Both the position numbers and the translations under genes were made by a program. From Candidatus Terraquivivens tikiterensis (GTDB taxonomy: Archaea > Thermoproteota > Nitrososphaeria_A > Caldarchaeales > Wolframiiraptoraceae): a stretch of DNA of 40,691 nt. The notes beneath the pieces are model-generated. The model ran no database searches. It was not told where the DNA came from and saw only the letters and a list, made by a program, of their open reading frames with translations. Below, in pieces: positions 2,403-35,546 of this stretch (position 1 is the stretch's first letter; each line of letters opens with the position of its first letter). The stretch spans positions 1-40,691 of the forward strand of contig NDWU01000014.1 of the NCBI GenBank assembly GCA_003056285.1, written 5' to 3'.

Positions 2403-3263
2403 TTGTCGCGCGGTAAGGCGTCCAACTCCAACGTAGAGGTTCTGTACGACATTCCGAGGTTAGAAGAGAAGTTGATAGTCAGGGCGCTGACGAGCTTAGG
2501 GATCAAACCCAAGTTAACGACAGTTAAGGAGAAGCCCTTGCTCTTCAAAGAGAACGCGCCGAGCGTGTGCTTGATCAGGCCCATGTCCATGTACAGGGCG
2601 GCGTACTCGGCTGCCGTAAGGGAGTCATCCGGAAGTTTTACGATAAATAGCTCCGAAGCCATAATCGCTTGCGGCGACAAGGTTCTGACGCTCGCCAAGC
2701 TAGCATCGGCAGGGCTAAGGATACCGAAGAGCATGGTGGCGCTGACCATGCAATCTGCGGAAGAGGCATACAGGTTGATGGGTTTTCCGCTGGTCGATAA
2801 ACCGCCAATCGGTGGGTGGGGTAGGCTGGTCTCCCTAATATCTGATGAGGCCGCTTACAGAAGCCTGTTGGAACACCGTGAGATGATGACGACGCAGCAG
2901 CTTAGGACACACATAATCCAAGAATACATAAGGACGCCCGGAAGGGATGTAAGGATAATAGTTTTGGACAACGAAGTCCTAGGCGCTATGTACAGGTACA
3001 AACAGGAAAACGAGTGGAGGTCAAACGTAGCGCTCGGAGCAAAGGCTGTTGGCTTTAAGCCAGACGAAGAGCTGTCAGAGATATGCATAAAGGCAGCGAA
3101 CGCTGTTAAGGGTGTGTTCGTCTCAGTGGACGTACTCGAATCTGATGGGTATTTTCTGAACGAGGTGAACGGTGTGCCAGAGTTTAAAGCTTTCATAGAA
3201 GCGACCAAAAGAAACGTAGCCATGGACCTGGCTGAGTACGTGCTCAGGGTGCTCAAGCGATGA
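2403..3263 (+). CDS. LysX/ArgX-type ATP-grasp ligase, paralogue 1 (LysW-aminoadipate or LysW-glutamate ligase)
   Basis: RimK/LysX-like ATP-grasp: SSEAIIACGDKVLTLAKLASAGLRIPKS, IIQEYIRTPGRDVRIIVLDNEVLGAMYR, FLNEVNGVPEFK; overlaps argC/lysY by 4 nt. Confidence 0.85.
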   Translation: MSRGKASNSNVEVLYDIPRLEEKLIVRALTSLGIKPKLTTVKEKPLLFKENAPSVCLIRPMSMYRAAYSAAVRESSGSFTINSSEAIIACGDKVLTLAKLASAGLRIPKSMVALTMQSAEEAYRLMGFPLVDKPPIGGWGRLVSLISDEAAYRSLLEHREMMTTQQLRTHIIQEYIRTPGRDVRIIVLDNEVLGAMYRYKQENEWRSNVALGAKAVGFKPDEELSEICIKAANAVKGVFVSVDVLESDGYFLNEVNGVPEFKAFIEATKRNVAMDLAEYVLRVLKR

Positions 3264-4318
3264 CCGTTAAAGTATCGATAATAGGTGCCTCAGGCTACAC
3301 CGGAGGCGAGCTCCTTAGGCTACTGGCAAACCATGATAAGATAGAGCTAGTCTGTGCGACTTCAAGGGAATATGCAGGAAAGCCCCTGACGATAGTCCAT
3401 CCAAACTTGAGGGGCTTCTTCTCTGGCATGAAGTTCTCGGACGTGAACCTAGACAGGATCTCCTCGGACTCTGACATAGTGTTCGTGAACACGCCAGCAG
3501 GAACGTCAGTAAACTATACGCCGAAGTTATTGGAAACGGGCTTAAGGGTCATAGACCTAAGCCCGGACTTTAGGTTAAAGAGACCTGAGGATTACGAGTT
3601 GTGGTATGGGATGAAGCATCCAAGACCCGAGCTACTTAAGGAGGCGGTATTCGGTCTACCAGAACTCCACAGGAAAGAAATAAAATCCGCAAAGCTGGTA
3701 GCCTGTCCTGGTTGCAACTCGACGGCTGCCCTGCTTTCCCTAATACCTGCCGTCAAGGCCCGTATAATAGACTTGGACCATATAGCCATCGACGTAAAGG
3801 TTGGGAGCAGCGAGGCAGGAAGAATGCCTACCGCTGGCACCCACCATCCAGAAAGGGCCAACGTGATAAGACCGTATGAGGCATCCGGCCATAGGCACGT
3901 GGCCGAGGTGGAACAAGAGCTCTCGCAAATAGCCGGTAAGGAATTAAAGATGGCGTTCGTCCCGCATGCCGTCGGAAGTATAAGGGGCGCGCTGGCTACT
4001 TCGCACGTTTGGCTTCTCGATCCTGGCATGGACGAACAGGATGTTTGGAAAGTTTACGCTGCTGAGTATGGAAAGGAACCCTTCGTCAGAATAGTAAGGG
4101 GTAAGCCGTACCAGTATCCTGACCCAAAGCACATCATAGGCAGCAACTTTGCGGATGTAGGTTTTGCCGTCGAGAAAAGGGTTGGTAGAGCGGCTTTGAT
4201 GGCCGCCATTGACAATCTGGTAAAGGGCGCGGCGGGTCAGGCCATACAGTGCATGAACATAATGCTGGGATTTGACGAGAAAACCGGCCTCAACTTTCCA
4301 GCACTTAGGCCTGCCTGA
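3260..4318 (+). CDS. argC/lysY: LysW/N-acetyl-gamma-glutamyl(aminoadipyl)-phosphate reductase
   Basis: N-terminal GASGYTGGELLRLL, catalytic VACPGCNSTAALL, HPERANV; full length. Confidence 0.95.
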   Translation: MTVKVSIIGASGYTGGELLRLLANHDKIELVCATSREYAGKPLTIVHPNLRGFFSGMKFSDVNLDRISSDSDIVFVNTPAGTSVNYTPKLLETGLRVIDLSPDFRLKRPEDYELWYGMKHPRPELLKEAVFGLPELHRKEIKSAKLVACPGCNSTAALLSLIPAVKARIIDLDHIAIDVKVGSSEAGRMPTAGTHHPERANVIRPYEASGHRHVAEVEQELSQIAGKELKMAFVPHAVGSIRGALATSHVWLLDPGMDEQDVWKVYAAEYGKEPFVRIVRGKPYQYPDPKHIIGSNFADVGFAVEKRVGRAALMAAIDNLVKGAAGQAIQCMNIMLGFDEKTGLNFPALRPA

Positions 4319-4375: not shown

Positions 4376-5236
4376 ATGAAATTATTTTGAACGAGGGATG
4401 AAAAAGGTAAAACAAATGTATACATTCAGATAAACGACAAAATCTTTAGGGCTGTAGATGAACCATTGGGCGTTCTGTTAACCCTCAAGAAAGAAGGCAA
4501 GGTGAACCTTTACGAGGAAATAGGTCTGACGGCAGAAGAGCTGCTCGGGAGGGAGAGGCTAATACTCCCTTACGACCCACCAGAGATATGGGGTGCAGGA
4601 ATAGTTTACGAAAGGGCCAGAGTTAGGTATGCCGAGGAAGATGTTGCGACGATTAAGGGCATGAACATTTACGAAATAGCATACGTATCCGAAAGGCCTG
4701 AGCTATTCTTAAAAGATGTTGGCGGGAGACGGTCTGTCGGACATGAAGACTTCATCAATATCCGAAGCGACTCGGCTTGGACGCTACCCGAGCCCGAGCT
4801 GGGTGTTGTGTTGGATGCTGATGGGTCTGTTCTTGGTTACACGGTATGTAACGACGTTACAGCACGGGACATAGAGGCTCAGAACCCTCTATACCTGCCC
4901 CAGGCAAAAATCTATAAGGGCTGCTTCTCCTTTGGGCCATTCATAACTACCCCCGACGAAATCGTAGACCCGCATAACCTCCTCATAAGAATGAGGATAC
5001 TCAGGAACGATGGCGTGGTGTTCGTTGGCGAAACGAGCACCTCGAAGATGAAGAAAAGAATAGAAACTATAGTATCTTACTTGTTGAGGGATAACGTCAT
5101 ACCCTCCGGGACGTTGGTTTCAACGGGTACGGGCATAATTCCGGGCAGGGATGTACAGCTTAAAGATAACGACAGAGTAGAAATATACATCGAGAAAATA
5201 GGGACGTTGGTGAATTGCGTAAGAAAGCTCAAATAA
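4376..5236 (+). pseudogene. FAH-family protein resembling 2-keto-3-deoxy-D-arabinonate dehydratase; full frame from ATG 4376 has an in-frame TGA at 4388-4390 (codon 5), ORF track starts at TTG 4466
   Basis: Same frame from 4376: MKLF*TRDEKGKTNVYIQINDKIFRAVDEPLGVLL...PPEIWGAGIVYERARVRY...SDSAWTLPEPELGVVLDADG...TVCNDVTARDIEAQNPLYLPQAKIYKGCFSFGP; body is intact FAH fold. Confidence 0.75.
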
Positions 5237-5320: not shown

Positions 5321-6109
5321 CTATAGGTATCTTACCATCTGCCTTACCTTCTCGACGTTGTAACGATAAATCCTTGTCAAATCAAATATGTCGTAGCCTA
5401 TCGATACGAACCTAAAGCCCTTCTTGATGGCATCCACGGCATCGTTAACAGAAAGAGCAGCAATTCCGGGCGCAACGCCCCTCCTTTTGCACGCCTCTAA
5501 AACTTTCTCGATAGCAGACTTAAACTTTGGATGCTCGAAATTTCCGAATATCCCCAGATTTGCGGATAGATCGTAGGGTCCTACGAACGCTACGTCGATG
5601 CCGCTGACCGAAAGTATCTCATCGACGTTGCTGATAGCATCCTCCGTCTCTATTTGTGTAATTACTAGAATTTCATCCCAAACACCCCTGAAGTACTCCT
5701 CGTTCGATTCCAGTCCGTAATATACGGCCCTCCTAGGACCAAAACCCCTGATGCCCCTCGGAGGATACGTTGTAGCTTTGATAACCGCCTCTGCCTCTTC
5801 ACGCGTGTTGACCCATGGGACCATGATGCCGTATGCACCTACGTCAAGAACCCTTTTGATGGTCACAAAGTCGTTCCATGGAACCCTAACGATCGGGGCG
5901 GTGTCCGTGCCGTTGGTTGCAGGCAAAAGTCTTTGTAAGTCGTTTATCTCTAAAGAGCTGTGCTCCATATCGAACAAAAGCCAATCGAGGCCTACTCTTG
6001 AGAGCGCCTCGACGACGTCTACGCTGTTGATCGTAACCCAAGCACCTATAGCCGGCCTTCCATCGCGTAACAATTGCTTAACTTTGTTCCTAAACATATC
6101 GTGCATCAC
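5321..6109 (-). CDS. HpcH/HpaI-family 2-oxo acid aldolase
   Basis: GAWVTINSVDVVEALSRVGLDWLLFDMEHSSLEINDLQ, VPWVNTREEAEAVIKATTYPPRGIRGFGPRRA, QIETEDAISNVDEIL, DVAFVGPYDLSANLG. Confidence 0.92.
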   Translation of the reverse strand: MMHDMFRNKVKQLLRDGRPAIGAWVTINSVDVVEALSRVGLDWLLFDMEHSSLEINDLQRLLPATNGTDTAPIVRVPWNDFVTIKRVLDVGAYGIMVPWVNTREEAEAVIKATTYPPRGIRGFGPRRAVYYGLESNEEYFRGVWDEILVITQIETEDAISNVDEILSVSGIDVAFVGPYDLSANLGIFGNFEHPKFKSAIEKVLEACKRRGVAPGIAALSVNDAVDAIKKGFRFVSIGYDIFDLTRIYRYNVEKVRQMVRYL

Positions 6110-6229
6110 TGTTAGGTTAAATGCGCTGATACGTATGCCCGCTTGCCGGAAACTTATAAGTTTTGGCGTAGTGTATTAACTCTCCACATAAAAGGAAATA
6201 TATCGTTTTAGCGACGCTTTTACGAGCCC

Positions 6230-7042
6230 GTGAGAATTATGATGGTGGTTAAGGCTGGCGGAAGAGCCCTGGCCCAGAATAGGGACAGGATACTGAACAG
6301 CATAGCCTCAAGGGCAAGCAGGGGGATAATCTTTGTGCACGGGGGTGGCGACCTAGTCTCAGAGTATTCTAAGAGAATGGGCATAGAGCCCAAATTTGTC
6401 ACATCGCCGCAGGGCATAAGGAGCAGGTATACCGACGAGAAGGAGATTGAGGTGTACAACATGGTCATGTCTGGTAAGCTGAACAAAGAGATAGTTTCGT
6501 ATCTAGAAAAGCAGGGCGTTAGAGCAGTCGGCATAAGCGGCGTTGACGCTGGCGTGCTGAAAGCCGAGAGGAAGAAGAAGATAGTCGTGGTCGATGAGCG
6601 CGGAAGGAAGAGAATCATGGACGGTGGTTACACGGGAACGATAGTTTCTGTGAACGCTGAATTGCCCAGAACGCTCGTGGAGCAAGGATACGTCGTTGTG
6701 CTCTCACCGGTCGCCATAGGTTCCGAGGGCGAGCTCCTCAACGTCGACGGTGACCAGGCTGCTGCGGCTATAGCGAGAGCCCTAAGGGTCGAACTCTTGG
6801 TAATGCTGACGGACGTGGACGGTCTGATCTTAGACGGCCAGCTCATACGCGAGATAACCCCTCGAGAGGCACGGGAGCTCTTGCCGAGGATAGGCGCCGG
6901 CATGAACAGAAAGGTTATGCTTGCGGCCGAGGCCGTTGAGGCGGGCGTCGAACGCTGCGTCATCTGCTCAGGGCTTTCCGAAGAACCGCTCTCGGCGCTG
7001 GAGCAAGGATACGGCACAGTGATAAGGATGCGCGCTTTTTAG
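6230..7042 (+). CDS. lysZ: LysW-aminoadipate/glutamate kinase (ArgB-like amino acid kinase)
   Basis: VVKAGGRAL, IIFVHGGGDLVSEYSKRMG, VNVDGDQAAAAIARAL-type amino acid kinase motifs; next to lysW. Alternative start ATG 6239. Confidence 0.92.
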   Translation: MRIMMVVKAGGRALAQNRDRILNSIASRASRGIIFVHGGGDLVSEYSKRMGIEPKFVTSPQGIRSRYTDEKEIEVYNMVMSGKLNKEIVSYLEKQGVRAVGISGVDAGVLKAERKKKIVVVDERGRKRIMDGGYTGTIVSVNAELPRTLVEQGYVVVLSPVAIGSEGELLNVDGDQAAAAIARALRVELLVMLTDVDGLILDGQLIREITPREARELLPRIGAGMNRKVMLAAEAVEAGVERCVICSGLSEEPLSALEQGYGTVIRMRAF

Positions 7043-7175
7043 CAATCGTAGAAATCGGTTACGACTTATGTCGAAAATATGTCCGAAAATCGTAGTATTA
7101 ATCCGAAATATTGCCATTTATACACCAAGTTAAAACATTTATATTACGTATGACTACGAAAAATGTAGTGGTGGT

Positions 7176-7361
7176 GTGGCGCAGCACATGGTAAAGGTTA
7201 CGTGTCCGATATGCGGCGGTAAGCTGGATATACCAGAAGACTCGCTACCGGGCGAGCTGTTCGAGCACGAAGAGTGCGGCGCTCACTTAGAACTGGTTAT
7301 AACCGGGGGAAAGTTTGAGCTAAAGCTAGCCGAGGAGATAGCCGAAGACTGGGGACAGTGA
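7176..7361 (+). CDS. lysW: LysW amino-group carrier protein, C-terminus EDWGQ
   Basis: VTCPICGGKLDIPEDSLPGELFEHEECGAHLELV...LAEEIAEDWGQ*; Zn-ligand pattern C-x2-C...H-x2-C and acidic C-tail. Alternative start at ATG 7188-7190 region (MVKVTCP). Confidence 0.95.
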   Translation: MAQHMVKVTCPICGGKLDIPEDSLPGELFEHEECGAHLELVITGGKFELKLAEEIAEDWGQ

Positions 7362-7368
7362 AACTCGG

Positions 7369-8214
7369 TTGAGGATTGGGCTGGCCTATGACCTCTTAAG
7401 ATGGGAAGAGAAATCTCTTGCGTACGCCATCAAAGATTTAGGCTACACGCTGGAGCTCATACGCGTTCCAGAATCCGTCTTCCAACTAACGGAGCCAGGA
7501 AACAACGAGCTCGATTTGGTCTTCGAGAGGTGCGTAAGCTTCTACAGGGCCTTAGCATCTTCGCTTGCTCTACAAGAGCAGGGGATACCCGTCGTGAACA
7601 GCTTCGATGTCATAAGGAACTGCGGCGACAAAATGTTTACTACGATGGTTTTGGCGAAGAAAGGTATACCCGTGCCAAGGACTATGATAGCGTTTGATAG
7701 AGAGAGGGCGCTTGACGCTGCAAAGAAGATCGGATACCCCGTCGTTGTAAAACCGATACACGGGAGCTGGGGTAGGATGATAGCTAAGGCCGACGATGAA
7801 TCCTCGCTGCTGGACATCATCGATTTTAGGGAGAACATGCCGTCGCCCCACTTTCAGATACACTACATCCAAGAGTTCATAAGGAAGCCCGGAAGGGACA
7901 TTAGGGCCTACTACGTATGGGGAGAGGTTCCTGTTGCCATCTACAGGGTTAGCCAGAACTGGAAGACGAACACAGCCCTCGGCGCAAGGGCAGAACCAGC
8001 CAGCTTGGACGAGAACCTGAAGGAACTTGTCATAAAGGCCGGCGATGCGTTGGGCGGTGGTGTTCTGGGTGTGGACCTGATGGAGGGCGAAGACGGTAGG
8101 GTATTGGTGTCCGAGGTGAACGCCGTAGTCGAGTTTAAGAATACCGTTAGGGTTACGGGTTACGACCTACCCCGCAAGATAGTATCTTCGACGGTAGAAG
8201 CGCTAAGGAGATGA
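7369..8214 (+). CDS. lysX: LysX-type ligase, paralogue 2 (LysW--L-2-aminoadipate ligase or ArgX)
   Basis: Directly downstream of lysW; SFDVIRNCGDKMFTTMVLAKKGIPVPRT, PVVVKPIHGSWGRMIAKADDE, YIQEFIRKPGRDIRAYYVWGEVPVAIYR, VSEVNAVVEFKN. TTG start. Confidence 0.92.
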   Translation: MRIGLAYDLLRWEEKSLAYAIKDLGYTLELIRVPESVFQLTEPGNNELDLVFERCVSFYRALASSLALQEQGIPVVNSFDVIRNCGDKMFTTMVLAKKGIPVPRTMIAFDRERALDAAKKIGYPVVVKPIHGSWGRMIAKADDESSLLDIIDFRENMPSPHFQIHYIQEFIRKPGRDIRAYYVWGEVPVAIYRVSQNWKTNTALGARAEPASLDENLKELVIKAGDALGGGVLGVDLMEGEDGRVLVSEVNAVVEFKNTVRVTGYDLPRKIVSSTVEALRR

Positions 8215-9407
8215 ACGCTTTAGAGAAAAGTTTAAGGATAATACCGTTCGCTAAGCCACGGCTTCTTAGGTTATCTAGAGCTTACGGACAGTACGTATGG
8301 GACGAAGCGGGAAGGAAGTATCTGGACTGTCACACAGGACACGGTGCGGCCTTTCTTGGCCATAGGAACCCCAAGGTAGTAGAAAGTATTAAGCATCAGA
8401 TGGACGTCATCATGACTGCCACGCCAGCTTTCCAGACGGACATCGCCGACGAAGTTCTATCGAAGCTTTCGAGGATACTCCCTAGCGGCATGGGTTACGT
8501 ATACTTTCTGAACAGCGGGAGCGAGGCAGTAGAGCTGGCGATGAAGATCGCACGTAAGGTAACCGGAAGGAAAAGGTTCGTAGCTTTCAGGAACTCCTTT
8601 CACGGTAGGACGATGGGTGCCCTATCCGTCACCTGGAACCCAAGGTATAGGGAAGGCTACGAGCCTTTTCCGTGGGAGACGAGGTTCATCCCTTACAACG
8701 ATGCCGACGCAGTAACCTCAGCTGTAGACGAGAGCGTTGCGGCTGTGCTGCTCGAACCCGTCCAGGGCGAGGGTGGGTTGACGCCTGCCACGCAAGGTTT
8801 TGCGAGAGCGTTGGCGGAGGCCTGCGAAGGGGCCGGAGCGTTTTTAATAGTCGATGAGGTTCAAGCTGGCTTCGGTAGGACTGGCAGGGTATGGGCGCAT
8901 GAGCATCTGAATATAAAGCCGGACATACTAGTTGCGGGCAAGTCTATCGGCGGAGGTTTTCCGGTAAGCATGGTTGCTGTTAGGAGCTCGATAGGTGAGA
9001 GGCTACGCGAAGCCGAGCACGGCTCTACGCACGGCGGAAACCCGTTGGCCCTGGCTGCCGTATCAGGGGGCATAGATGTCCTCATCGGCGACTCGGTTCC
9101 GTCAAAAAGCTCGCTTTTGGGGGAGAAGCTGTCGGCAGAGCTAAAAAAGGTGGTGGAGCGTTGTACGCATGCAGCGCGTGGTGTAAAGGGGATGGGGCTA
9201 ATGTTGGGAATAGAGTTAAGGTTCAGCCCTGAGGAGGTTATACGTGAATTGCAGACGAAAGGTTTGCTGTGCCTTAAGGCCGGAGCCACGGTCCTAAGGC
9301 TGCTACCTCCCTACTTGATAAACGATGAGGACATAAGGCTTTGCTCTGAGCTCATCGAAGAGGTTCTTTCCTCTTGGAAACCTGAGAAGGGGGGTTCTGG
9401 AGCATGA
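8211..9407 (+). CDS. lysJ: LysW-gamma-lysine/ornithine aminotransferase (ArgD/LysJ)
   Basis: Class III aminotransferase: YLDCHTGHGAAFLGHRNP, NSGSEAVELAMKIARK, FLIVDEVQAGFGRTGRVWAHEH, ILVAGKSIGGGFPVS. Confidence 0.95.
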   Translation: MNALEKSLRIIPFAKPRLLRLSRAYGQYVWDEAGRKYLDCHTGHGAAFLGHRNPKVVESIKHQMDVIMTATPAFQTDIADEVLSKLSRILPSGMGYVYFLNSGSEAVELAMKIARKVTGRKRFVAFRNSFHGRTMGALSVTWNPRYREGYEPFPWETRFIPYNDADAVTSAVDESVAAVLLEPVQGEGGLTPATQGFARALAEACEGAGAFLIVDEVQAGFGRTGRVWAHEHLNIKPDILVAGKSIGGGFPVSMVAVRSSIGERLREAEHGSTHGGNPLALAAVSGGIDVLIGDSVPSKSSLLGEKLSAELKKVVERCTHAARGVKGMGLMLGIELRFSPEEVIRELQTKGLLCLKAGATVLRLLPPYLINDEDIRLCSELIEEVLSSWKPEKGGSGA

Positions 9408-10468
9408 CTTCCGTCAACGAGGTAAGGGATATGCTTATTCGGATTTTAGATACGTACACACCTTCTGGCGAAGAGTGGAGGCTTCACGAGCCGCTCCGGG
9501 AAATATGCTCGCGCCTGGGTTATGAAAGCTACGGTGTGGATGAGGTAGGTAGCTTCATAGCAGAATACGGATCTGGCAAGACGATCCTGCTCGCCACCCA
9601 CATGGATACTGTTCCTGGCAGGCTCGAGGTGAAGGCCTCAAACGACGAGGTCTGGGGCAGGGGTGCAGTCGATGCCAAAGGGCCGCTCATGGCCATGCTA
9701 ATAGGCGCGGCCAAGGCTAAGAGCAGCGTCAAGGGCGCAAGGGTAGTCGTAGCGTGCCTTATCGATGAGGAAAGGGAGGGCAAGGGTGCGAACCACCTGG
9801 TAAACTCTGGCTTTAGGGCTGACCATATAATAATCGGCGAGCCTACCGGGACCACGGGCGTTGCGATAGGCTACAGGGGGAGCTTGACTGTTAAGGTTAG
9901 CGCATCGGCAAGCGGTGGTCATAGCAGCGCACCATACATGGGAGAGTCGGCGCTGGAGAAGCTCTTCGCTCTTTGGGAGGAGATAAAGCACAACTTCTCA
10001 GGCAGGGGTTATGAGGAGACGTCTGTATGCATAACCGTTTTAGAAGCCGGAGACTGGCCGACTAAGCTTCCAGAGTTTGCAAGGGCCATAATCAACGTAA
10101 GGATTCCGTATAATGTTCTATCTAAACAAATCTTGAGCAAGCTCGAGGAGCTTTGCTGGGAACACGGCTGCGAGCTCTCTGTGCTGGAGAGAACGGAGCC
10201 TGTCAAGGTTAGCCTGTCCAGCCCCGTCCCGAGGTCCCTGATTAGGAGCATACTGAGGGTTGGCTTGAAGCCAAAAGTAGTTATGAAGACAGGAACGAGC
10301 GACATGAACGTGATGTACAGGATATCCTCTGATATAGCAGCTTACGGCCCTGGGGATTCCCTCTTGGCACATACGACGCTAGAGAAAATATCCATAAGGG
10401 ACGTCATGACAGCGGCAGAAGTTTACAAGAATTGCATCGTCGAGCTTGCATCTGCCAGCCAAGCATAG
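9404..10468 (+). CDS. lysK: LysW-lysine/ornithine hydrolase (ArgE/DapE M20 family)
   Basis: YTPSGEEWRL, LLATHMDTVPG, WGRGAVDAKGPLMAM, CLIDEEREGKGANHLV, IIGEPTG; terminates with TAG. Confidence 0.93.
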   Translation: MTSVNEVRDMLIRILDTYTPSGEEWRLHEPLREICSRLGYESYGVDEVGSFIAEYGSGKTILLATHMDTVPGRLEVKASNDEVWGRGAVDAKGPLMAMLIGAAKAKSSVKGARVVVACLIDEEREGKGANHLVNSGFRADHIIIGEPTGTTGVAIGYRGSLTVKVSASASGGHSSAPYMGESALEKLFALWEEIKHNFSGRGYEETSVCITVLEAGDWPTKLPEFARAIINVRIPYNVLSKQILSKLEELCWEHGCELSVLERTEPVKVSLSSPVPRSLIRSILRVGLKPKVVMKTGTSDMNVMYRISSDIAAYGPGDSLLAHTTLEKISIRDVMTAAEVYKNCIVELASASQA

Positions 10469-10542
10469 TGGCCGAGAGTTTATGCACAAGGCTTTTTAGA
10501 GGGAGTGCCCCTCCGTTACTGGATCGGCAGGTTTCTAGCGGG

Positions 10543-11991
10543 ATGGCTCGTATGCACAGAAGGGGAAGGATGGAACGGGAGCTTGACGTAGATGCTGCCA
10601 AATACACTTCTTCGCTCCACTTCGACAAGGAGATACTAGAAAGCGTGATTTTGGTAAACATAGCGCACGTAAAGCTTCTGGAAAAGGCGGGAATAATACC
10701 ATCGGATCTGGCCGAGAGGGCAGAGAAGCACCTCCAAGGGATGCTGAAAAACCCGCCGAGCCTTGACGACCCAAGGTACGAGGATGTGCACATGGTGATC
10801 GAGGCAGAGCTAACGAAGCACGTTCCCCAAATAGGCGCATCCCTCGCCCTCGGTAAGAGCAGGAACGATGCGGTCGTTACGGCCATAAAGCTTAGGCTCA
10901 AAGAAAGGCTTTTGAGGTTGCATGAAGTTTGTTTGGCGTTTTGCGACGCCCTTCTGAGAAAAGCGCTCGCAGAGTCCGATACAATATTCCCTGTTTATAC
11001 GCACTTGCAGAGGGCTGCGCCAGCAACTTTTGGATTCGTCATGCACTCCTACGCCATCAGGGTCCTCAAAGCGCTCCAGCATGTAAAGATGCTCTATGAG
11101 TTGGTTGACGAGTCACCGCTCGGCTCGGCGGCGGTTGCGGGAACTAGCGTACCCTTGGACAGGGAGTACTCGGCATCGCTCTTGGGCTTCAGCAGGGTAA
11201 GCCAAAATGCTCTTGAGTCCACGGCATCAAGGGACTTTATAGTAGAGGCGCTATCGTGCTTGACTTTGATAATGCTCATACTCTCTTCCTTATCCGAAGA
11301 GTTGGTGATCTTCAGCTCGGAAGAGTTTGCCCTCATAGAGTTTCCAGAGGAGTTCTCGGCTACGAGTAGCATCATGCCCCAAAAACGAAACCCGGTAGTC
11401 GCGGAGATCTCAAGGACCAAGCTTGGAGAGTTGTTGGGCCTACTAACGTCCGCTACAGTGATCGCTGCGAGGCAGGCAAGCGGTTACAACCTAGACCTCC
11501 AGCAGATAACGCCAAAGCTATGGCAGGCGCTCGAGGTTGTTGAGGAAACCTTACAAATGATGACAAAGCTCGTACCCAGCTTGAAGGTCAATAAAGACAG
11601 ATGCATGAGAGCATGCAACCCGCCGACTGGGGTTGTAGAGGTCGCGAACTACCTTTCCCTAGAGCATAAAATACCTTTCCGTGATGCGCACGCATTCGCT
11701 GGTAGAATTAGTAAGCTTTTATACGATGGAAAACTCGATGAGGCCTCTCTCCGAAAAACAAAAGCTGAGTTCAACATAGACGTCCCCCTAGAGCTCGACG
11801 ACCTCATGGTTTTGATGGAGCCGACGAGGGTCGTGCACTCCTACAGGACGGTAGGATCTGCAAACCCTGCTTTGGTAAGGCGTGCCGTAGAGGATAGCAT
11901 GGTGTGCCTTGAGGATGAGAGAAGGTGGGTCCGGGACAAAAGGGTAAAGCTTGAATACGCCCTGAACAAATTAAAGGGGCAAAAAAGCTAA
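10543..11991 (+). CDS. argH: Argininosuccinate lyase
   Basis: GRMERELDVDAAKYTSSLHFDKE, VHMVIEAELTK, SRNDAVVTAIKLRL, TSSIMPQKRNPVVAEISRTKLG signature. ORF track extends to 10432; likely start ATG 10543 or 10552. Confidence 0.94.
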   Translation: MARMHRRGRMERELDVDAAKYTSSLHFDKEILESVILVNIAHVKLLEKAGIIPSDLAERAEKHLQGMLKNPPSLDDPRYEDVHMVIEAELTKHVPQIGASLALGKSRNDAVVTAIKLRLKERLLRLHEVCLAFCDALLRKALAESDTIFPVYTHLQRAAPATFGFVMHSYAIRVLKALQHVKMLYELVDESPLGSAAVAGTSVPLDREYSASLLGFSRVSQNALESTASRDFIVEALSCLTLIMLILSSLSEELVIFSSEEFALIEFPEEFSATSSIMPQKRNPVVAEISRTKLGELLGLLTSATVIAARQASGYNLDLQQITPKLWQALEVVEETLQMMTKLVPSLKVNKDRCMRACNPPTGVVEVANYLSLEHKIPFRDAHAFAGRISKLLYDGKLDEASLRKTKAEFNIDVPLELDDLMVLMEPTRVVHSYRTVGSANPALVRRAVEDSMVCLEDERRWVRDKRVKLEYALNKLKGQKS

Positions 11992-12067
11992 AGCCGAGGG
12001 ATTCCGGATAAAGTTCGTTGAAGATTTATTAATAACCTAATCGGTTTCCAGACTCGGATTTGGTATA

Positions 12068-12376
12068 GTGAACGTCTATATTTTTGGAGGAACGTCAAGT
12101 ATGGCCGACAAAGCTAAACCCTCGGAGCAGGAGAGAGCCCAAGCGTTCTCCCCGAGCAAGCACGTTTTGGTTCCGAGGCATGAGATAATGACGAAGGAAG
12201 AAGTGGAGGAGCTGCTGAAAAGGTATCGTATAAAACCGCAACAGCTCCCTTATATTCTGGCCTCGGACCCCATCGTTAAGGAAATCGGCGCGAAGCCGGG
12301 TGACGTTATAAGGATCATAAGGCAGACGGAAACCGCAGGAAGGACGGTTTATTACAGGCTGGTAGTGAGGGAGTGA
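12068..12376 (+). CDS. rpoH: DNA-directed RNA polymerase subunit H (RPB5 C-terminal domain-like)
   Basis: [70 protein letters not shown]; immediately before rpoB. Confidence 0.95.
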
Positions 12377-12379
12377 GCT

Positions 12380-15300
12380 ATGCAAAAAGACTATAAGCTT
12401 ACAGCGGAAGATCTTTGGTATGTAGCTAAAAGCTTCATAGAAGAAGAAGGGCTCGTTCAGCATCAAATCAGGTCATACAACTATTTTATCAGAAAGGGTC
12501 TACAGGAACTCGTCAATTCTTTGGACGTGCAGGAGATTAAAACGAAACACGGAACGCTAACCTTTAAGTTTGGGACGATCGAGGTAGATAAACCGCGGGT
12601 CATCGAGATAGATGGCACGGTCAACGAGAACATAACGCCTGCCGAGTGCCGGCTCAGGAAGCTCACGTACGCCGCGCCGTTGTATGCCAAGATGAACCTG
12701 TACTTGGATGGAAGGCTCCTATCCTCAGAGCGCGTAGAGGTTGGAATAATACCGGTGATGGTGAAGAGCGACATATGCCCGCTATCGAAGATGACGCATG
12801 ACGAGCTACTGGCCATAGGCGAGGACCCCATGGACCCAGGGGGATACTTCATAATCAACGGCTCCGAACGCGTAATAGTTGCCATAGAGGATTTGGCGCC
12901 TAACAAGATACTCGTAACGGAAAAGGACGTCGGTGGTAAGCCACAGTATACTGCGGTCGTGCTATCCTCTGCGTTCGGTAGGCAAGCTAAGGTCGAGGTT
13001 ACTTACAAGGAAGGCGGCCCGATAAGGGTTTTCTTCTCAAGGATCTACAAAGGCATACCGGCCATAATCCTTCTCAGGGCCTTGGGCATGACGAACGACA
13101 GGGAGATCGTAAGCTTCATATCGCCAGTGAAAGAAGTCCAAGAGTTGCTGGAGGCTCCCTTCAAGGAAGCGGAGGGCGTAGAGACAGTCGAGGACGCTCT
13201 AAAGTACATAGGCAACAAGATAGCTTTCGGGTATGCTGAGGAATATAGGGTACAAAGGGCCGAGCAGCTGATAGATAACGTTCTCCTACCGCATATAGGG
13301 ACCGATAAGGCCTCGAGATATCTTAAGGCGGTATTCTTATGCGAGATGATAGGTAGGGTATTGGAGACAAGCCTGGGCCTCAGGAAGCCCAGCGACAAGG
13401 ACCACTATGCCAACAAGCGCGTGAAGCTGGCAACACCCTTGCTGATGGAGCTTTACAGGATGGCATTCTTGAAACTCATAAGGGATGTGAGGTACCAACT
13501 GGAAAGGTTATTGACAATAAGGCAGCCAACGTCCATATCTACGTTCGTCAGGCCAGGGATAGTCGCAGATTTTGTCAAGCATGCGTTCGCTACAGGGAAC
13601 TGGCCCGGTGGTAGGGTTGGCGTAACCCAGCTGCTGAACAGAACCAACTACCTGGCAACGCTGAGCCATCTAAGGAGGGTGCAGTCACCCTTGAGCAGGA
13701 GCCAGCCACACTTCGAGGCAAGGGACCTTCATGGAACGCACTGGGGCAGGATATGTCCCGCCGAGACACCAGAGGGTAGCAACTGCGGTCTGGTTAAGAA
13801 CCTAGCGCTCTCGGCGGAGTTCTCGTTCCCTATGAATAGGCGCGAAGTCTTGGATAAGCTCTACGTGCTTGGGGTCATGCCCTTAAGCGAGGCCATAAGT
13901 CGAAAAAGGTTCTTGTCGACGAAGGTGTTCGTGGACGGTCTACTGGTAGGTTTCCATCCAAACGGGCAAGAGCTCGTTACGGAGCTAAGAAACCTGAGAA
14001 GGAACGGTGAGATAAACAACAACATGAACGTTGCGCTGTATAGCTACAAGCACATCCAAGAGGTCTGGATAAACACAGATGAGGGCAGGGTCAGAAGGCC
14101 TTTAATAATCGTCGAGAGGGGCTTGCCAAGATTAAACCGCAACCACGTAGAGGCAATAAAGAATAGAATATCCAGGTTTAGAGACCTTGTTTCCATGGGA
14201 ATCATTGAGTTTTTGGATGCTGAAGAGGAGGAGAACGCGTACGTTGCCCTAACGCCGGAGACGGTCACGCCCGAGCATACGCACGTGGAAATATCTCCAT
14301 ACATGATGCTTGGGGCTGTCACCTCGATAATCCCTTACGCTGAGCACAACCAATCTCCAAGGAATGTATACGAGGGTGCTATGGCCAAACAGGCCTTGGG
14401 CTTCTTCGCCTCGAATTATGAGATAAGGACGGACTCAAGGATGCACCTTCTCGTCTATCCCCAGAAACCCATCGTCACGACAAAATCAATCGAGCTGATA
14501 GGCCTTAACAGCAGGCCGATAGGCCAGAATATGGTCGTCGCAATACTCTCAGCTCAAGGGTATAATATGGAGGACGCTGTTGTACTTAACAAATCATCCG
14601 TCGAGAGAGGACTTGGCCTTTCCCTTAGCTACAGGACTTACGAGGTAGAGTCAAGACAGTACCTTGGAGGCCAGAGGGATAGGTTTGGGATACCAGAACC
14701 CAGCATAAGAGGCTACAAGGGCGAGCAATATTATAGGATACTGGATGCGGATGGGTTGGCCCATATAGAATCCGACGTGAGCGGAAATATGGTAATAGTC
14801 GGCGTTATGAGCCCGCCGAGGTTCATAGAAGAGTACACGCGTACGCCGGCAAGGGAGATGGTGTGGAGGGACGCGTCAGAAGTAGTCAGACAGTCCGAGA
14901 GCGGCGTCGTTGACCAAATATTCATAACTAGGACGGACGAGGGCAACAAGCTCGTAAAGGCAAGGGTTAGGACTACGTGCTTCGTCGAGATAGGCGACAA
15001 GTTCTCGTCGAGACACGGACAGAAGGGCGTTGTAGGTGCGCTCTTCCCGCAGGAGGACATGCCCTACACGGAGGATGGCATAGTCCCAGACCTGATAATA
15101 AACCCGCACGCATTCCCCTCAAGGATGACGATCGGCCAGCTCATCGAGAGCATAGCCGGAAAGGTCGCGGCCATAAAGGCTGAGCCTGTTGACGGAACGC
15201 CGTTCTTTGGCAAGAGTCTTGAAGAATTAAGGGCAGAGCTTGAAGCGCTGGGCTTCAAGAGCTCGGGGACATCGGTAATGTACGACGGCTTGACCGGCAA

Positions 15301-15730
15301 GAAATTCGAGGCGGAAATCTTCATCGGTGTAGTTTACTACCAGAGGCTACACCACCTAGTCAGGGACAAAATACATGCCAGGGCACGTGGGCAGGTACAG
15401 ATGCTAACCCGGCAGCCGACCGAAGGGAGAGCCAGGGGTGGCGGCCTGAAGTTTGGGGAGATGGAGCGCGACTGCTTGGTTGCGCACGGGGCCGCTTACC
15501 TGCTTTTGGACAGGCTACTCGAGCAGTCCGATAAGTACGTCGCGTACTTCTGCGAAAAGTGTGGCTTACCGGCATACTACGACCTCAAACAGGAGCGTAT
15601 GGTTTGTAGGGTGTGCGGGAAGGAGGCGAGCATAAAGCCCGTCGTCATGTCCTATGCATTCTACCTCCTACTGAACGAGTTGTTGAGCATGTGCATCTAC
15701 CCGAAAGTAAAGTTGGAGGAGCTGGTTTGA
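12380..15730 (+). CDS. rpoB: DNA-directed RNA polymerase subunit B, unsplit
   Basis: 1116 aa; GRICPAETPEGSNCGLVKNLAL, GYNMEDAVVLNKSS, GDKFSSRHGQKGVVG, C-terminal Zn ribbon CEKCGLPAYYDLKQERMVCRVCG. Confidence 0.98.
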   Translation: MQKDYKLTAEDLWYVAKSFIEEEGLVQHQIRSYNYFIRKGLQELVNSLDVQEIKTKHGTLTFKFGTIEVDKPRVIEIDGTVNENITPAECRLRKLTYAAPLYAKMNLYLDGRLLSSERVEVGIIPVMVKSDICPLSKMTHDELLAIGEDPMDPGGYFIINGSERVIVAIEDLAPNKILVTEKDVGGKPQYTAVVLSSAFGRQAKVEVTYKEGGPIRVFFSRIYKGIPAIILLRALGMTNDREIVSFISPVKEVQELLEAPFKEAEGVETVEDALKYIGNKIAFGYAEEYRVQRAEQLIDNVLLPHIGTDKASRYLKAVFLCEMIGRVLETSLGLRKPSDKDHYANKRVKLATPLLMELYRMAFLKLIRDVRYQLERLLTIRQPTSISTFVRPGIVADFVKHAFATGNWPGGRVGVTQLLNRTNYLATLSHLRRVQSPLSRSQPHFEARDLHGTHWGRICPAETPEGSNCGLVKNLALSAEFSFPMNRREVLDKLYVLGVMPLSEAISRKRFLSTKVFVDGLLVGFHPNGQELVTELRNLRRNGEINNNMNVALYSYKHIQEVWINTDEGRVRRPLIIVERGLPRLNRNHVEAIKNRISRFRDLVSMGIIEFLDAEEEENAYVALTPETVTPEHTHVEISPYMMLGAVTSIIPYAEHNQSPRNVYEGAMAKQALGFFASNYEIRTDSRMHLLVYPQKPIVTTKSIELIGLNSRPIGQNMVVAILSAQGYNMEDAVVLNKSSVERGLGLSLSYRTYEVESRQYLGGQRDRFGIPEPSIRGYKGEQYYRILDADGLAHIESDVSGNMVIVGVMSPPRFIEEYTRTPAREMVWRDASEVVRQSESGVVDQIFITRTDEGNKLVKARVRTTCFVEIGDKFSSRHGQKGVVGALFPQEDMPYTEDGIVPDLIINPHAFPSRMTIGQLIESIAGKVAAIKAEPVDGTPFFGKSLEELRAELEALGFKSSGTSVMYDGLTGKKFEAEIFIGVVYYQRLHHLVRDKIHARARGQVQMLTRQPTEGRARGGGLKFGEMERDCLVAHGAAYLLLDRLLEQSDKYVAYFCEKCGLPAYYDLKQERMVCRVCGKEASIKPVVMSYAFYLLLNELLSMCIYPKVKLEELV

Positions 15731-15731
15731 T

Positions 15732-18700
15732 ATGTCGTACAGGGGCTCTGTTGCGGCCATAAAATTCGGCATACTCTCGCCTGACCTAATCAGGAAGATG
15801 TCCGTGGCCGAGATACAAAACCCAGATACGTACGGCGACGACGGCCTCCCGATACCGACGGGCGTTATGGACCCGAGGCTGGGGACGTTGGAACCAGGCC
15901 AGCGTTGTAAGACATGCGGCAACACATACCTCGGATGTCCAGGACATTTCGGACACATAGAATTACCTGTGCCCGTCATACACGTTGGGTTCGCTAAGAC
16001 CATACACATGCTTTTAAAAGCTACCTGCAGGTCATGCGGCAGGATACTCCTGGACGATGAGCAGATAAAGAGCTTCAGGGAGGAGTTGGAGAGGGAGAAG
16101 CAATCCGGAAGACCGTACAGGCACATCTACTTTAAGATAATGCAAAAGGCCACGTCGACGCAGACATGTCCGCACTGCGGCGAGAAGCAGGTGAGGATCG
16201 AGCTGGAGAAGCCGACGACTTTCATAGAGGCCTCGGAGTCGGAGCTGGTAAGGCTTCCAGCTAGCGTGGTAAGAACTAGGCTCGAGAGGATACCCGACGA
16301 GGACCTAGTGTTGCTGGATATAGATCCTACGAGCGCAAGGCCAGAATGGATGGTGCTCACGGTATTGCCCGTGCCCCCAGTATACGTAAGACCATCCATC
16401 ACGCTAGAATCCGGCTTCAGGTCAGAGGACGACCTAACGCACAAGCTGGTGGACATACTCAGGGTCGCCCAGAGGCTTAGGGAAAATATAGCGGCAGGGT
16501 CACCCTCGCCCGTCATAATGGAGCTATCCGACCTTCTCCAGTACCATGTAACGACCTACATCAACAACGAGGCGGTAGGGACGTCACCATCCGTTCATAG
16601 GTCCGGCCGTGTGCTAAAAACGTTGGCGCAAAGGTTGAAGGGCAAAGAAGGTAGGTTCAGGTTAAACCTTTCCGGAAAGAGGGTAGACTTCTCTGCCAGG
16701 ACCGTTATATCCCCAGACCCCAACATAGGGATAAACGAGGTCGGCGTCCCCTTAGAGATAGCGATGCAGCTTACCGTACCGGAAAAAGTTAACGCCTGGA
16801 ACATCGAAAGGCTAAGAGAATACGTAAGGAATGGCCCGGACAAGTATCCTGGTGCAAAATACATAATCAGGCCGGACGGTAGAGCCATCAGGCTGAAGCT
16901 TGCTCATGACCTGAATGAGCTAGCAAACGCTCTCGAACCAGGCTACATAGTCGAGCGGCACCTGATAGATGGGGACATCGTCCTGTTTAACAGGCAGCCG
17001 TCGCTACACAGGATGTCCATAATGGCCCATATAGTAAAGGTCCTTCCCTACAAGACGTTCCGTCTTAACCTTGCAGTTTGCACACCATACAACGCGGACT
17101 TTGACGGCGACGAGATGAACCTGCACGTTCCGCAGAGCGAGGAAGCTCAAACGGAAGCTAGGATATTGCTTCTGGTACAAAACAACATAATATCACCGCG
17201 CCATGGTGCACCAATAATCGGAGCGATCAGGGACTTCCTAACGGCAGCATACCTGCTGACAAAGGACGATACGCTTCTCAGCTTAAAAGAGGTCTCCTAC
17301 CTGCTCTCTGCGATAGGGTACGACGGTGAGTTACCAGAGCCCGTAGTAAGCGAGCCGCAACCGCTATGGAGCGGCAAGCAGATATTTAGCCTGCTGCTTC
17401 CAAAGGACTTCAATCACAAATTCAGGTCCAGCTTCTCGCCCGAGGAGACAGTCATAATACAGGACGGCAAGCTCGTAAAGGGTGTGATAGATAAGAACGG
17501 TATAGGTGTAGAAAAAGCAAACAATATAATACACAGGTTAGTGAGAGATTACGGGTACGACGTAGCCAGGGAGTTCTTAGACAAGGTAGTGAAGCTTACC
17601 AACACGTACCTTCGCATCAGAGGCTTTACGTTCACCGTAGACGACTTAACGGTGCCGTCCGAAGTCTACAAGGATATATCCAAACTCTTTGTAAAGATGG
17701 ACGAGGAGTTTGTTAAGCTTAAAACGGATTACGAAAAGGGTAAGGCCCCCGTCTATCCCGGTGAGACTCCTGAGCAATCGTTCGAGTCTGCCGTCCTTTC
17801 CCTGCTATCGAGGACTAGGGACATGGCCGGCAAGATCGTGAGGCAGAACATCCCGCCCTCGAATAACGCGATAATCATGATAAAGACAGGAGCTAGGGGG
17901 ACCTCGCTTAACATCGACCAAATGATAGCGGTAGTCGGTCAGCAGGCCGTTAGAAGGGAAAGGATAAAGAGGGGCTATACCGACAGGGTCCTTACCTTCT
18001 TCAAGCCCGGAGACCTATCGCCTAGGGCAAGGGGCTTCGTTTACAACTCGTTCATGAGCGGCTTGGACCCGGTAGAATTCTTCTTCCACATGGTAGGCGG
18101 AAGGGATGGGCTGGTCGATACGGCAGTGAGAACTCAGCAGAGTGGTTACATGCAACGCCGGCTTATAAACGCCCTAGAATCCTTGTACGTTGAATACGAC
18201 GGCACGGTAAGGACGACGGATGAAAAAAGGATAATCCAATTCCAGTACGGTGAGGATGGTGTCGACCCAGCTAAGAGCGAACACGGACAACCGGTTAACC
18301 CAGCCGTTGTTGTGGAGAGGGTGATGAGCTCTCTGCCGGCCGATAAACCTGCCTCATACGATTATCTGGTGTCCAAAGCTGAACTGTATAGGAAGCTCAT
18401 GCCCGAGAAGATCGTCGAGGAGTTAATGAACGAGCTCACAAAGGTAAAGGCATCGGAGCGGGTGATCGACAAATCGTTCGAGGAGGCATACAGGGTATAC
18501 TTGAACTCTAGGGTAGAGCCTGGCGATGCCGTGGGCGTCGTAACGGCCCAATCGATAGGTGAGCCTGGAACCCAGCTTACACTCAGAACGTTCCACTTTG
18601 CTGGCGTTAGGGAGCAGAGCATACTGCTCGGCTTGCCGAGGTTAATCGAGATCGTCGATGCCCGCAAGGTCCCCTCCACGCCTATAATGAGGATATACCT

Positions 18701-19550
18701 TCAGAAGGAGTTTGCAAAGGATAGGGCTAAAGCCCAGAAGATTGCAAACCAGATACTGCACACGCCCCTCAAGGACATAGTTTCCGAAGTCACGATAAAC
18801 TACAAACGTGGAACCCTGACCGTTAAGTTGGAAACTGATACGATGCACGAAAGGGGTGTTACGTTGAACGACGTGAAGAACGCCCTGAAAGCCTATAAGC
18901 CAGAAGTGAAGGACACTGACACGATAATCCTAAAACCATCCGAGGATACAGTGCAAGCGCTGGAAAGGCTCAGGGATAGGATTCTGCTAGATGATAAGAT
19001 GACTGTCAAAGGTATCAAAAGAATAACTAAGGCTATAGTCTCGCAAGAGGGTGATGAGTATATAATCCTCACGGAGGGCTCAAACTTAAGGGAGGTGGTG
19101 AAGGTGCCAGGCGTCGATGCCACTAGGGTTATTACGAACGACATACACGAGATCGCAGAGGTCTTGGGAATAGAGGCCGCGAGGAACGCCATAATAAACG
19201 AAGCGAAGAACGTCCTCCGCGAGCAGGGGCTAGACGTTGACGTTAGACACCTTACCCTGTTGGCAGACATGATGACCGTAAGCGGTAGCGTGAAGCAGGT
19301 GGGTAGGCATGGTGTGATTAAGCTGAAGGAGAGCGTGCTTGCCAGGGCAGCGTTCGAGATAAGCGTCCAGGTGTTGCTCGACGCGGCGACAAGGGGAGAG
19401 GTAGATTACTTGAAGGGCAACGTTGAGAGGATACTGATGGGGAAGGAGATACCGGTAGGCACGGGAATGGTCTCGTTGTTGATGCTTCACCAGGCTGCGT
19501 CGTCTGGTAACAGGTCGGGTGGCGGGGATGAACATAAGGAAGGAGCTTGA
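15732..19550 (+). CDS. rpoA: DNA-directed RNA polymerase subunit A, single chain (A' and A'' fused)
   Basis: 1272 aa containing both A' (catalytic [15 protein letters not shown]) and A'' ([31 protein letters not shown] ... [18 protein letters not shown]) in one continuous frame. Confidence 0.98.
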   Translation: [1272 protein letters not shown]

Positions 19551-34941: not shown

Positions 34942-35546
34942 GTGGAGAAGCTTTACACGCTTAAGGAGGCCAAAGAACTTCTCGGAGTCACGACGAGGAC
35001 TATCCAGCGTTGGGACAAGGATGGAAAGATTAGGTTGTTAGGACGATTGGCGGACGCAGGAGGATACCCGAGGGCGAGATAAAGCGGATTCTGAAGTTGA
35101 AGGAAGAGAGAGTTGTCTTTGGATACGCGAGGGTCTCCTTAACGCAGAGGGATGACTTGAAAAGACAGAAGCAGCTCGTGGTAAATTACGTTAAGGAGAG
35201 AGGTTATGGGGAAACTCAGATACTTTCAGACATCGGCTCAGGTTTAAACGAGAATAGGAAGGGCTTCCTGAAGCTCTTAGAAATGGTTTCCGAAAAGAAA
35301 GTCTCAAAGGTTATCGTCGCCTATGGTGATAGGCTTACGAGGTTCGGCCTCGAAACCCTGAGAAAGCTTTTCTCATCGTTCGGAACAGAAATAGAGGTGA
35401 TAAACCACGAGGAGAAAACGCCGCAAGAGGAGCTTGCCGAAGACCTCATAGCGATAGTTTCCCACTTTGCTAGAAGGCTCTACGGTATGAGGAGCCATAA
35501 GTGTAAAGAGGTGGTAGAGTGTGTCAAGAAGCTCGTATCAGGTTAG
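34942..35546 (+). pseudogene. tnpA: IS607-family serine recombinase TnpA, frameshifted between HTH and resolvase domain
   Basis: GTG 34942: [33 protein letters not shown], then frame change to [46 protein letters not shown] (ORF 35097-35546). Confidence 0.85.

What the first reader, a model, noticed from the sequence alone, without database searches (positions are those of the whole stretch)
7176..7361. LysW carrier protein ends in Gln (EDWGQ) rather than the canonical C-terminal Glu
Sequence shows GAA GAC TGG GGA CAG TGA, so the mature C-terminus is E-D-W-G-Q. In characterised LysW proteins the conserved C-terminal Glu (EDWGE) supplies the gamma-carboxylate to which aminoadipate or glutamate is ligated. 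A terminal Gln cannot be used directly by LysX/ArgX. An attractive analogy is Pup, whose C-terminal Gln is deamidated to Glu by Dop before ligation; a LysW deamidase (or direct transamidation chemistry) would be a new step. The rest of the pathway is intact and adjacent, so pathway loss is unlikely.
Basis: partly seen in the sequence, partly recalled or inferred. Interest (0 to 1): 0.72.

Follow-up and report, generated by a model that had tools for sequence, protein, structure and literature searches.

The report
LysW carrier encoded with terminal glutamine
In many archaea, including most ammonia oxidisers sampled here, the small protein that carries lysine and arginine precursors is encoded with a final glutamine where the known chemistry needs a glutamate, so either an unrecognised Pup-like activation step or a different attachment chemistry is probably at work.

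Summary
Confirmed and extended. The window's LysW (ATG 7188 to stop 7361) ends EDWGQ (GGA CAG TGA). It is not an error: all six sampled genomes of the genus (Candidatus Terraquivivens) have CAG, and each has only this one LysW.

Gln-ending LysW recurs. EDWGQ-stop occurs in 86 of 398 Thermoproteota genomes (one checked hit, G072, is spurious) and in none of 126 Thermoplasmatota genomes, where 22 Glu-type matches were found. On a tree of 128 partner LysX proteins Glu/Gln changes at least 10 times, 8 forced by well-supported branches. In a sample not chosen by last residue, all 59 LysW end in Glu or Gln. In the family of ammonia oxidisers with small genomes (Nitrosopumilaceae by inference), 59 of 62 genomes keep one Gln-carrier and at least one Glu-carrier; in the two loci read in full these sit beside homocitrate synthase and argG, with shared downstream enzymes.

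No Dop/PafA homologue exists in 30 genomes, and no gene beside the cluster tracks Gln. My preferred reading is a Pup-like pro-form deamidated once before first loading, most economically by LysK. The main rival is ligation to the alpha-carboxylate of Gln, as in RimK. Sequence cannot decide; intact-mass measurement can. I found no report of it, but most subscription literature was not searchable.

The parts
7188..7361 (+). LysW/ArgW amino-group carrier protein, 57 aa, ending EDWGQ (the GTG at 7176 is an upstream in-frame codon)
   Evidence: PF21344 and NF041070 above their cut-offs; homologues align from this ATG
7356..7358 (+). last sense codon CAG (Gln) in place of GAA/GAG (Glu)
   Evidence: direct reading; same codon in 6 of 6 genomes of the genus
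7369..8214 (+). LysX/ArgX ATP-grasp ligase, copy 2, with GSWGR motif
   Evidence: TIGR02144 332 bits vs 275.6; best PDB matches 5k2m, 3vpd, 1uc8 and 3vpb
2403..3263 (+). LysX/ArgX ATP-grasp ligase, copy 1, with GGWGR in place of GSWGR
   Evidence: TIGR02144 292 bits vs 275.6; sequence
3260..4318 (+). ArgC/LysY, [LysW] acyl-phosphate reductase
   Evidence: TIGR01850 417 bits
6230..7042 (+). LysZ/ArgB, [LysW]-aminoadipate/glutamate kinase
   Evidence: NF010662 347 bits vs 194
8211..9407 (+). LysJ/ArgD, [LysW]-semialdehyde transaminase
   Evidence: best hit NF045491, 485 bits, below its cut-off of 700; PF00202
9404..10468 (+). LysK/ArgE, M20 hydrolase that releases Lys/Orn from LysW; proposed here, untested, as the LysW-Gln deamidase
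   Evidence: NF001747 309 bits vs 288; NF003367 [LysW]-lysine hydrolase model 255 bits, below its cut-off of 363; best PDB match 5xoy [LysW]-lysine hydrolase
10432..11991 (+). ArgH argininosuccinate lyase (true start probably downstream of this ORF start)
   Evidence: TIGR00838 387 bits vs 279.5

Best explanation
The Gln is genuine and the carrier is functional. It is most likely translated as a pro-form (LysW-Gln) whose side-chain amide is hydrolysed to Glu before, or at, first use. LysX/ArgX then forms the ordinary gamma-linked adduct. LysW is regenerated as the Glu form on each release, so only one deamidation per molecule is needed. The most economical candidate for that step is LysK, whose normal reaction already cleaves a gamma-glutamyl amide on the LysW C-terminus, as Dop does for Pup; an unlinked amidase is possible. 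Shown: the Gln, its conservation and recurrence, the intact pathway, a single carrier, and no Dop homologue. Inferred: deamidation and its agent.
For: 1) Single Gln carrier in an intact cluster; the genome also has a homocitrate-synthase-like protein whose best PDB match is homocitrate synthase 6ktq. 2) Only Glu and Gln occur: 44 Glu and 15 Gln in 59 LysW not chosen by last residue. Gln is one of the seven missense single-base neighbours of a Glu codon, and the one that plain hydrolysis turns back into Glu. 3) At least 10 Glu/Gln changes on the LysX tree, 8 forced; EDYGE to EDYGQ in a further lineage. 4) In f7 ammonia oxidisers Gln- and Glu-carriers share one LysY-LysZ-LysJ-LysK set, simplest if both end up as the same adduct. 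5) No LysX residue tracks Glu/Gln across 8 independent contrasts after allowing for 1,032 tests. 6) ArgW E54A makes Natrinema an arginine auxotroph (PMC10433800), so the side chain matters. 7) Precedent: Dop deamidates PupGln and cleaves the Pup isopeptide, and many species encode PupGlu (PMC12288473, PMC7947786).
Against: No deamidase has been identified: no Dop/PafA homologue, CheD sporadic, no Gln-specific gene beside the cluster. In f7 ammonia oxidisers the Gln and Glu carriers are both kept in 59 of 62 genomes, and in 28 lysine-side loci the codon is CAG in 27 although nearby wobble sites vary. That looks like selection for Gln itself and is not expected if Gln were merely converted to Glu. 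Deamidation by LysK has never been tested, to my knowledge.
Confidence: 0.45

Rival explanations
1. LysX/ArgX ligates aminoadipate or glutamate to the alpha-carboxylate of the terminal Gln (a normal peptide bond), as RimK does on ribosomal protein S6, and LysK acts as a carboxypeptidase. No deamidation is needed and the Gln side chain is only a recognition element.
For: LysX is in the RimK family (TIGR00768, TIGR02144), and RimK structures are among its PDB relatives. LysK lies in the M20 family, with carboxypeptidase G2 among its structural relatives. Carrier peptides loaded at the C-terminal carboxylate are known in pearlin biosynthesis (PMC9303977). The model explains why Glu and Gln interchange without any consistent LysX change and allows Gln itself to be selected in f7 ammonia oxidisers.
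Against: The gamma linkage is the established one for Glu carriers (PMC10433800, PMC9303977), and f7 ammonia oxidisers process Gln- and Glu-carriers with one LysY-LysZ-LysJ-LysK set, which would then have to accept two geometries. ArgW E54A still has an alpha-carboxylate and is dead (PMC10433800). No residue other than Glu or Gln is seen at the end.
Confidence: 0.3
2. Direct exchange: the amine of aminoadipate/glutamate displaces ammonia from the Gln side chain (transamidation), giving the ordinary gamma adduct without a free Glu form.
For: It would need no separate deamidase gene, and none was found. An engineered Dop/PafA hybrid can use PupGln with ATP to pupylate (PMC7947786).
Against: LysX is an ATP-grasp enzyme that activates a carboxylate; no LysX residue tracks Gln.
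Confidence: 0.08
3. Gln-LysW is not a working carrier (regulatory or decaying copy) and another carrier does the job.
For: f7 ammonia oxidisers also have a Glu carrier.
Against: Terraquivivens, Caldarchaeum, HR01, two Geocrenenecus-type genomes and f45 genus g97 have one LysW each, ending in Gln; in f45 genomes G236 and G389 both carriers end in Gln.
Confidence: 0.05
4. Sequencing or assembly error.
For: The two codons differ by one base.
Against: Six of six genomes of the genus agree; more than 80 genomes carry the Gln form, with both CAG and CAA codons.
Confidence: 0.01

Closest known systems
LysW / ArgW amino-group carrier protein (AmCP) of Thermus, Sulfolobus, Thermococcus and Natrinema
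   Same: Zinc-ribbon domain, acidic tail, EDWG motif, operon with LysX, LysY, LysZ, LysJ and LysK
   Different: The last encoded residue is Gln, not the Glu whose gamma-carboxylate carries the load; the three LysW sequences found in the PDB end in Glu
Pup / Dop / PafA (actinobacterial pupylation)
   Same: A small protein whose C-terminal Glu gamma-carboxylate is ligated to an amine. Species encode either Gln or Glu there, and the isopeptide-cleaving enzyme (Dop) is also the deamidase
   Different: No sequence relation and no Dop/PafA homologue in these archaea; metabolic carrier rather than degradation tag
RimK / MptN / CofF alpha-glutamate ligases
   Same: Homologous ATP-grasp ligase family; add amino acids to an alpha-carboxylate
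   Different: Characterised LysX/ArgX uses the gamma-carboxylate; whether it uses the alpha-carboxylate in Gln-type archaea is untested
Pearlin carrier peptides (TglA, TmoA)
   Same: An amino acid is built while amide-linked to the C-terminus of a genetically encoded carrier and released by a protease (PMC9303977)
   Different: Loaded by aminoacyl-tRNA ligases (PEARLs); unrelated carrier

Membership tests
LysW/ArgW amino-group carrier protein | LysW zinc-ribbon domain | tested here: met
   PF21344 51.2 bits vs 27; NF041070 79 bits vs 75. The bacterial-type model TIGR01206 is below its cut-off (32.9 vs 53.2)
LysW/ArgW amino-group carrier protein | EDW(G) motif at the extreme C-terminus | tested here: met
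   EDWG invariant in the 15-row alignment
LysW/ArgW amino-group carrier protein | C-terminal Glu as encoded (gamma-carboxylate acceptor) | tested here: not met
   CAG = Gln. Filed therefore as a Gln-terminal variant, not as a canonical LysW
LysW/ArgW amino-group carrier protein | Linked genes for LysX/ArgX, kinase, reductase, transaminase and hydrolase | tested here: met
   the LysJ and LysK equivalog models are partly below cut-off
LysW/ArgW amino-group carrier protein | GSWGR motif in LysX that reads EDWGE | tested here: met
   GSWGR in copy 2, GGWGR in copy 1; motif defined in PMC10433800
LysW/ArgW amino-group carrier protein | Covalent amino-acid adduct on the C-terminus | not testable with these tools
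   needs mass spectrometry
Pup-Dop-PafA system | Dop/PafA (Pup_ligase) homologue in the genome | tested here: not met
   PF03136: 0 of 30 genomes; control rings in Corynebacterium glutamicum
Pup-Dop-PafA system | C-terminal Gln deamidated to Glu before ligation | not testable with these tools
   works-like claim only
RimK-type alpha-carboxylate ligation | Amino acid joined to the alpha-carboxylate of the carrier C-terminus | not testable with these tools
   family relation of LysX shown; linkage unknown

The most novel reading that the evidence does not exclude
Archaeal Gln-type LysW is either activated by a Pup-like Gln-to-Glu step, probably by LysK (making LysK a functional analogue of Dop), or carries its load on the alpha-carboxylate. 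In f7 ammonia-oxidising archaea the Gln/Glu difference would separate the lysine carrier from the arginine carrier.
Probability: 0.7. Interest if true: 0.72.

Novelty: new variant of a known kind. Interest (0 to 1): 0.62.

Why it matters
Glu at the LysW C-terminus is treated as the defining catalytic feature of amino-group-carrier biosynthesis. Here it is replaced by Gln in many archaea, including one carrier of nearly all 62 sampled members of a large ammonia-oxidiser family. Either lysine and arginine synthesis in these organisms includes an unrecognised deamidation step, a second independent case of the Pup trick, or LysX chemistry is more varied than thought. Both readings can be tested with small soluble proteins and cultivable organisms.

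Tried and rejected
Sequencing error: rejected by six agreeing genomes. Dop/PafA homologue: none in 30 genomes. CheD glutamine deamidase: 3 of 25 genomes, absent from Terraquivivens. Gln-specific neighbour gene: the genes flanking LysW are the same in Gln and Glu members of genus g5; an amidase-like ORF near G016's cluster (L085:14193-15578) is not shared with the other Gln member. LysX residues tracking Gln: the raw association is lineage-driven (Gln to Glu at residue 170 and Thr to Ala at 107 in the f7/f45 clade); with 8 independent contrasts and 1,032 tests nothing stands out (best is residue 270 Ala/Pro). Non-Glu/Gln endings: none among 59 LysW. G072's EDWGQ match is chance; its LysW ends in Glu. 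An overlap of the CAG codon with a GTG start of LysX as the reason for Gln: it exists in f7 but involves only the G shared by CAG and GAG, and is absent in the window. Other phyla: a second centre (G399) turned out to resample Thermoproteota; bacteria were not surveyed. A length-compensation idea (alpha-linked aminoadipate versus gamma-linked glutamate) was dropped because Terraquivivens has one carrier and two LysX copies.

Full report
Observation. The window carries a linked LysW-type lysine/arginine cluster: LysX copy 1, ArgC/LysY, LysZ, LysW, LysX copy 2, LysJ, LysK and ArgH. LysW runs from ATG 7188 to stop 7361. Its last codons are GAA GAC TGG GGA CAG TGA, so the encoded C-terminus is EDWGQ. 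The genome is that of a Candidatus Terraquivivens species (named relatives). It holds one LysW, and so does each of the five other sampled genomes of the genus. All six end in CAG TGA, which excludes a base-call error.

Both pathways probably depend on this carrier. The cluster has two LysX/ArgX copies. Elsewhere in the genome there is a 465-aa protein related to homocitrate synthase whose best PDB match is homocitrate synthase 6ktq, although it falls well below the TIGR02146 cut-off. ArgH is in the cluster.

How common it is. In 398 Thermoproteota genomes the pattern EDWG-Gln-stop occurs in 86 and EDWG-Glu-stop in 246; the reversed control rings in three or four. In 126 Thermoplasmatota genomes there are 22 Glu matches and no Gln, plus one Glu-like match that lacks a stop codon. 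Gln-only genomes include Terraquivivens, Caldarchaeum, HR01, two of the five g5 (Geocrenenecus-type) genomes, G161, and most of the sampled large-genome family f45. In the LysX tree a named Nitrososphaeraceae archaeon falls among the ammonia-oxidiser Gln partners, and from this and genome size I infer that f45 is Nitrososphaeraceae. In a sample chosen by homology alone, 59 LysW all end in Glu (44) or Gln (15), including an EDYGE group (family f13) with one EDYGQ member (G164).

On a tree of 128 LysX proteins adjacent to LysW, the Glu/Gln label needs at least 10 changes, of which supported branches force 8 (a smaller tree gave 7 and 5). Within genus g5 the two states are interleaved while LysX is 82-87% identical among four of the five members. 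One of the seven missense single-base changes of a Glu codon gives Gln. If all were tolerated equally, eight out of eight would have a probability near 2e-7 (my arithmetic).

Ammonia oxidisers. The exceptions are G115 (two Gln), G393 (Gln only) and G266 (two Glu). In the two loci read in full, the order is ArgG, LysW-Glu, ArgX-like ligase, LysY, LysZ, LysJ, homocitrate synthase, LysW-Gln, LysX-like ligase, LysK. The Glu carrier thus sits on the arginine side, the Gln carrier on the lysine side, and one set of downstream enzymes serves both. In f45 the lysine-side carrier is Gln in all six genomes examined, and the arginine-side carrier is also Gln in G236 and G389. Within f7 the lysine-side codon is CAG in 27 of 28 loci although neighbouring wobble bases vary, so Gln there appears to be kept by selection.

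Mechanism. Three facts limit the choices: (i) Gln carriers must work, because several genera have no other LysW; (ii) only Glu and Gln are tolerated; (iii) no LysX residue follows Gln across independent contrasts, and no gene beside the cluster does so in the one genus where both states could be compared closely. I prefer a pro-form deamidated once per carrier lifetime. LysK is the economical candidate because its known reaction already hydrolyses a gamma-glutamyl amide on this C-terminus. This is the logic of Dop, which deamidates PupGln and cleaves the Pup isopeptide, while many species simply encode PupGlu (PMC12288473, PMC7947786). Dop itself is absent. The LysK role is inferred and untested.

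The strongest rival is ligation to the alpha-carboxylate of Gln. LysX belongs to the RimK family, whose other members do this, and carrier peptides loaded at the C-terminal carboxylate exist (PMC9303977). Against the rival: the gamma linkage is established for Glu carriers, an E54A ArgW fails in Natrinema (PMC10433800), and f7 ammonia oxidisers pass both carrier types through one set of enzymes. In the rival's favour: Gln appears to be selected in the lysine-side carrier, which plain conversion to Glu does not explain.

Comparison with the known. The protein is a LysW by domain, motif and gene context, but it fails the defining C-terminal Glu as encoded, so I file it as a Gln-terminal variant. 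It may work like Pup/Dop but does not belong to that system. The string EDWGQ was found in no listed paper of the searchable library, and the papers read describe only EDWGE. One metabolic model assigns a LysW and an ArgX to Nitrosopumilus maritimus (Nmar_1287, Nmar_1288) with no remark on the C-terminus in the passages read (PMC6038301). Most subscription literature on LysW could not be searched, so prior knowledge of the Gln form cannot be excluded.

Noticed in passing
L081 (G046) 5484-14937 and L082 (G055): Lysine/arginine cluster of f7 ammonia oxidisers with two LysW/LysX pairs: Glu carrier next to argG, Gln carrier next to homocitrate synthase, one shared LysY-LysZ-LysJ-LysK set.
   Followed up: partly
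L188 (G158) and L189 (G098): A LysW-like zinc-ribbon ORF whose C-terminus is a long Glu/Trp-rich tail in place of EDWGE; no canonical LysW was found in those genomes.
   Followed up: no
window 4466-5236 (+) and 5321-6109 (-): A fumarylacetoacetate-hydrolase-family gene and an HpcH/HpaI-type aldolase gene lie between LysY and LysZ; the arrangement recurs in another Terraquivivens genome (L089).
   Followed up: partly
window 2403-3263: LysX copy 1 has GGWGR where other LysX/ArgX proteins have GSWGR, the motif said to read the LysW tail.
   Followed up: no
LysX residue 170 (window LysX2 numbering), f7/f45 lysine-side LysX: A Gln that is invariant in 55 Glu-carrier partners is Glu in 27 of 45 Gln-carrier partners. 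It looks lineage-bound but is a curious reciprocal swap.
   Followed up: partly
L229 (G266): An f7 genome whose lysine-side carrier ends in GAG (Glu) beside a LysX of the kind that elsewhere partners Gln carriers: a natural test case.
   Followed up: no
window 15732-19550: RNA polymerase A subunit encoded as one uninterrupted 1272-aa ORF.
   Followed up: no
window 35521-36891: TnpB-like RNA-guided endonuclease ORF (NF040570, below its cut-off).
   Followed up: no
L085 (G016) 14193-15578: An amidase-signature-like ORF near the Gln-type cluster of one genus-g5 genome, not found in the other Gln member's locus.
   Followed up: partly
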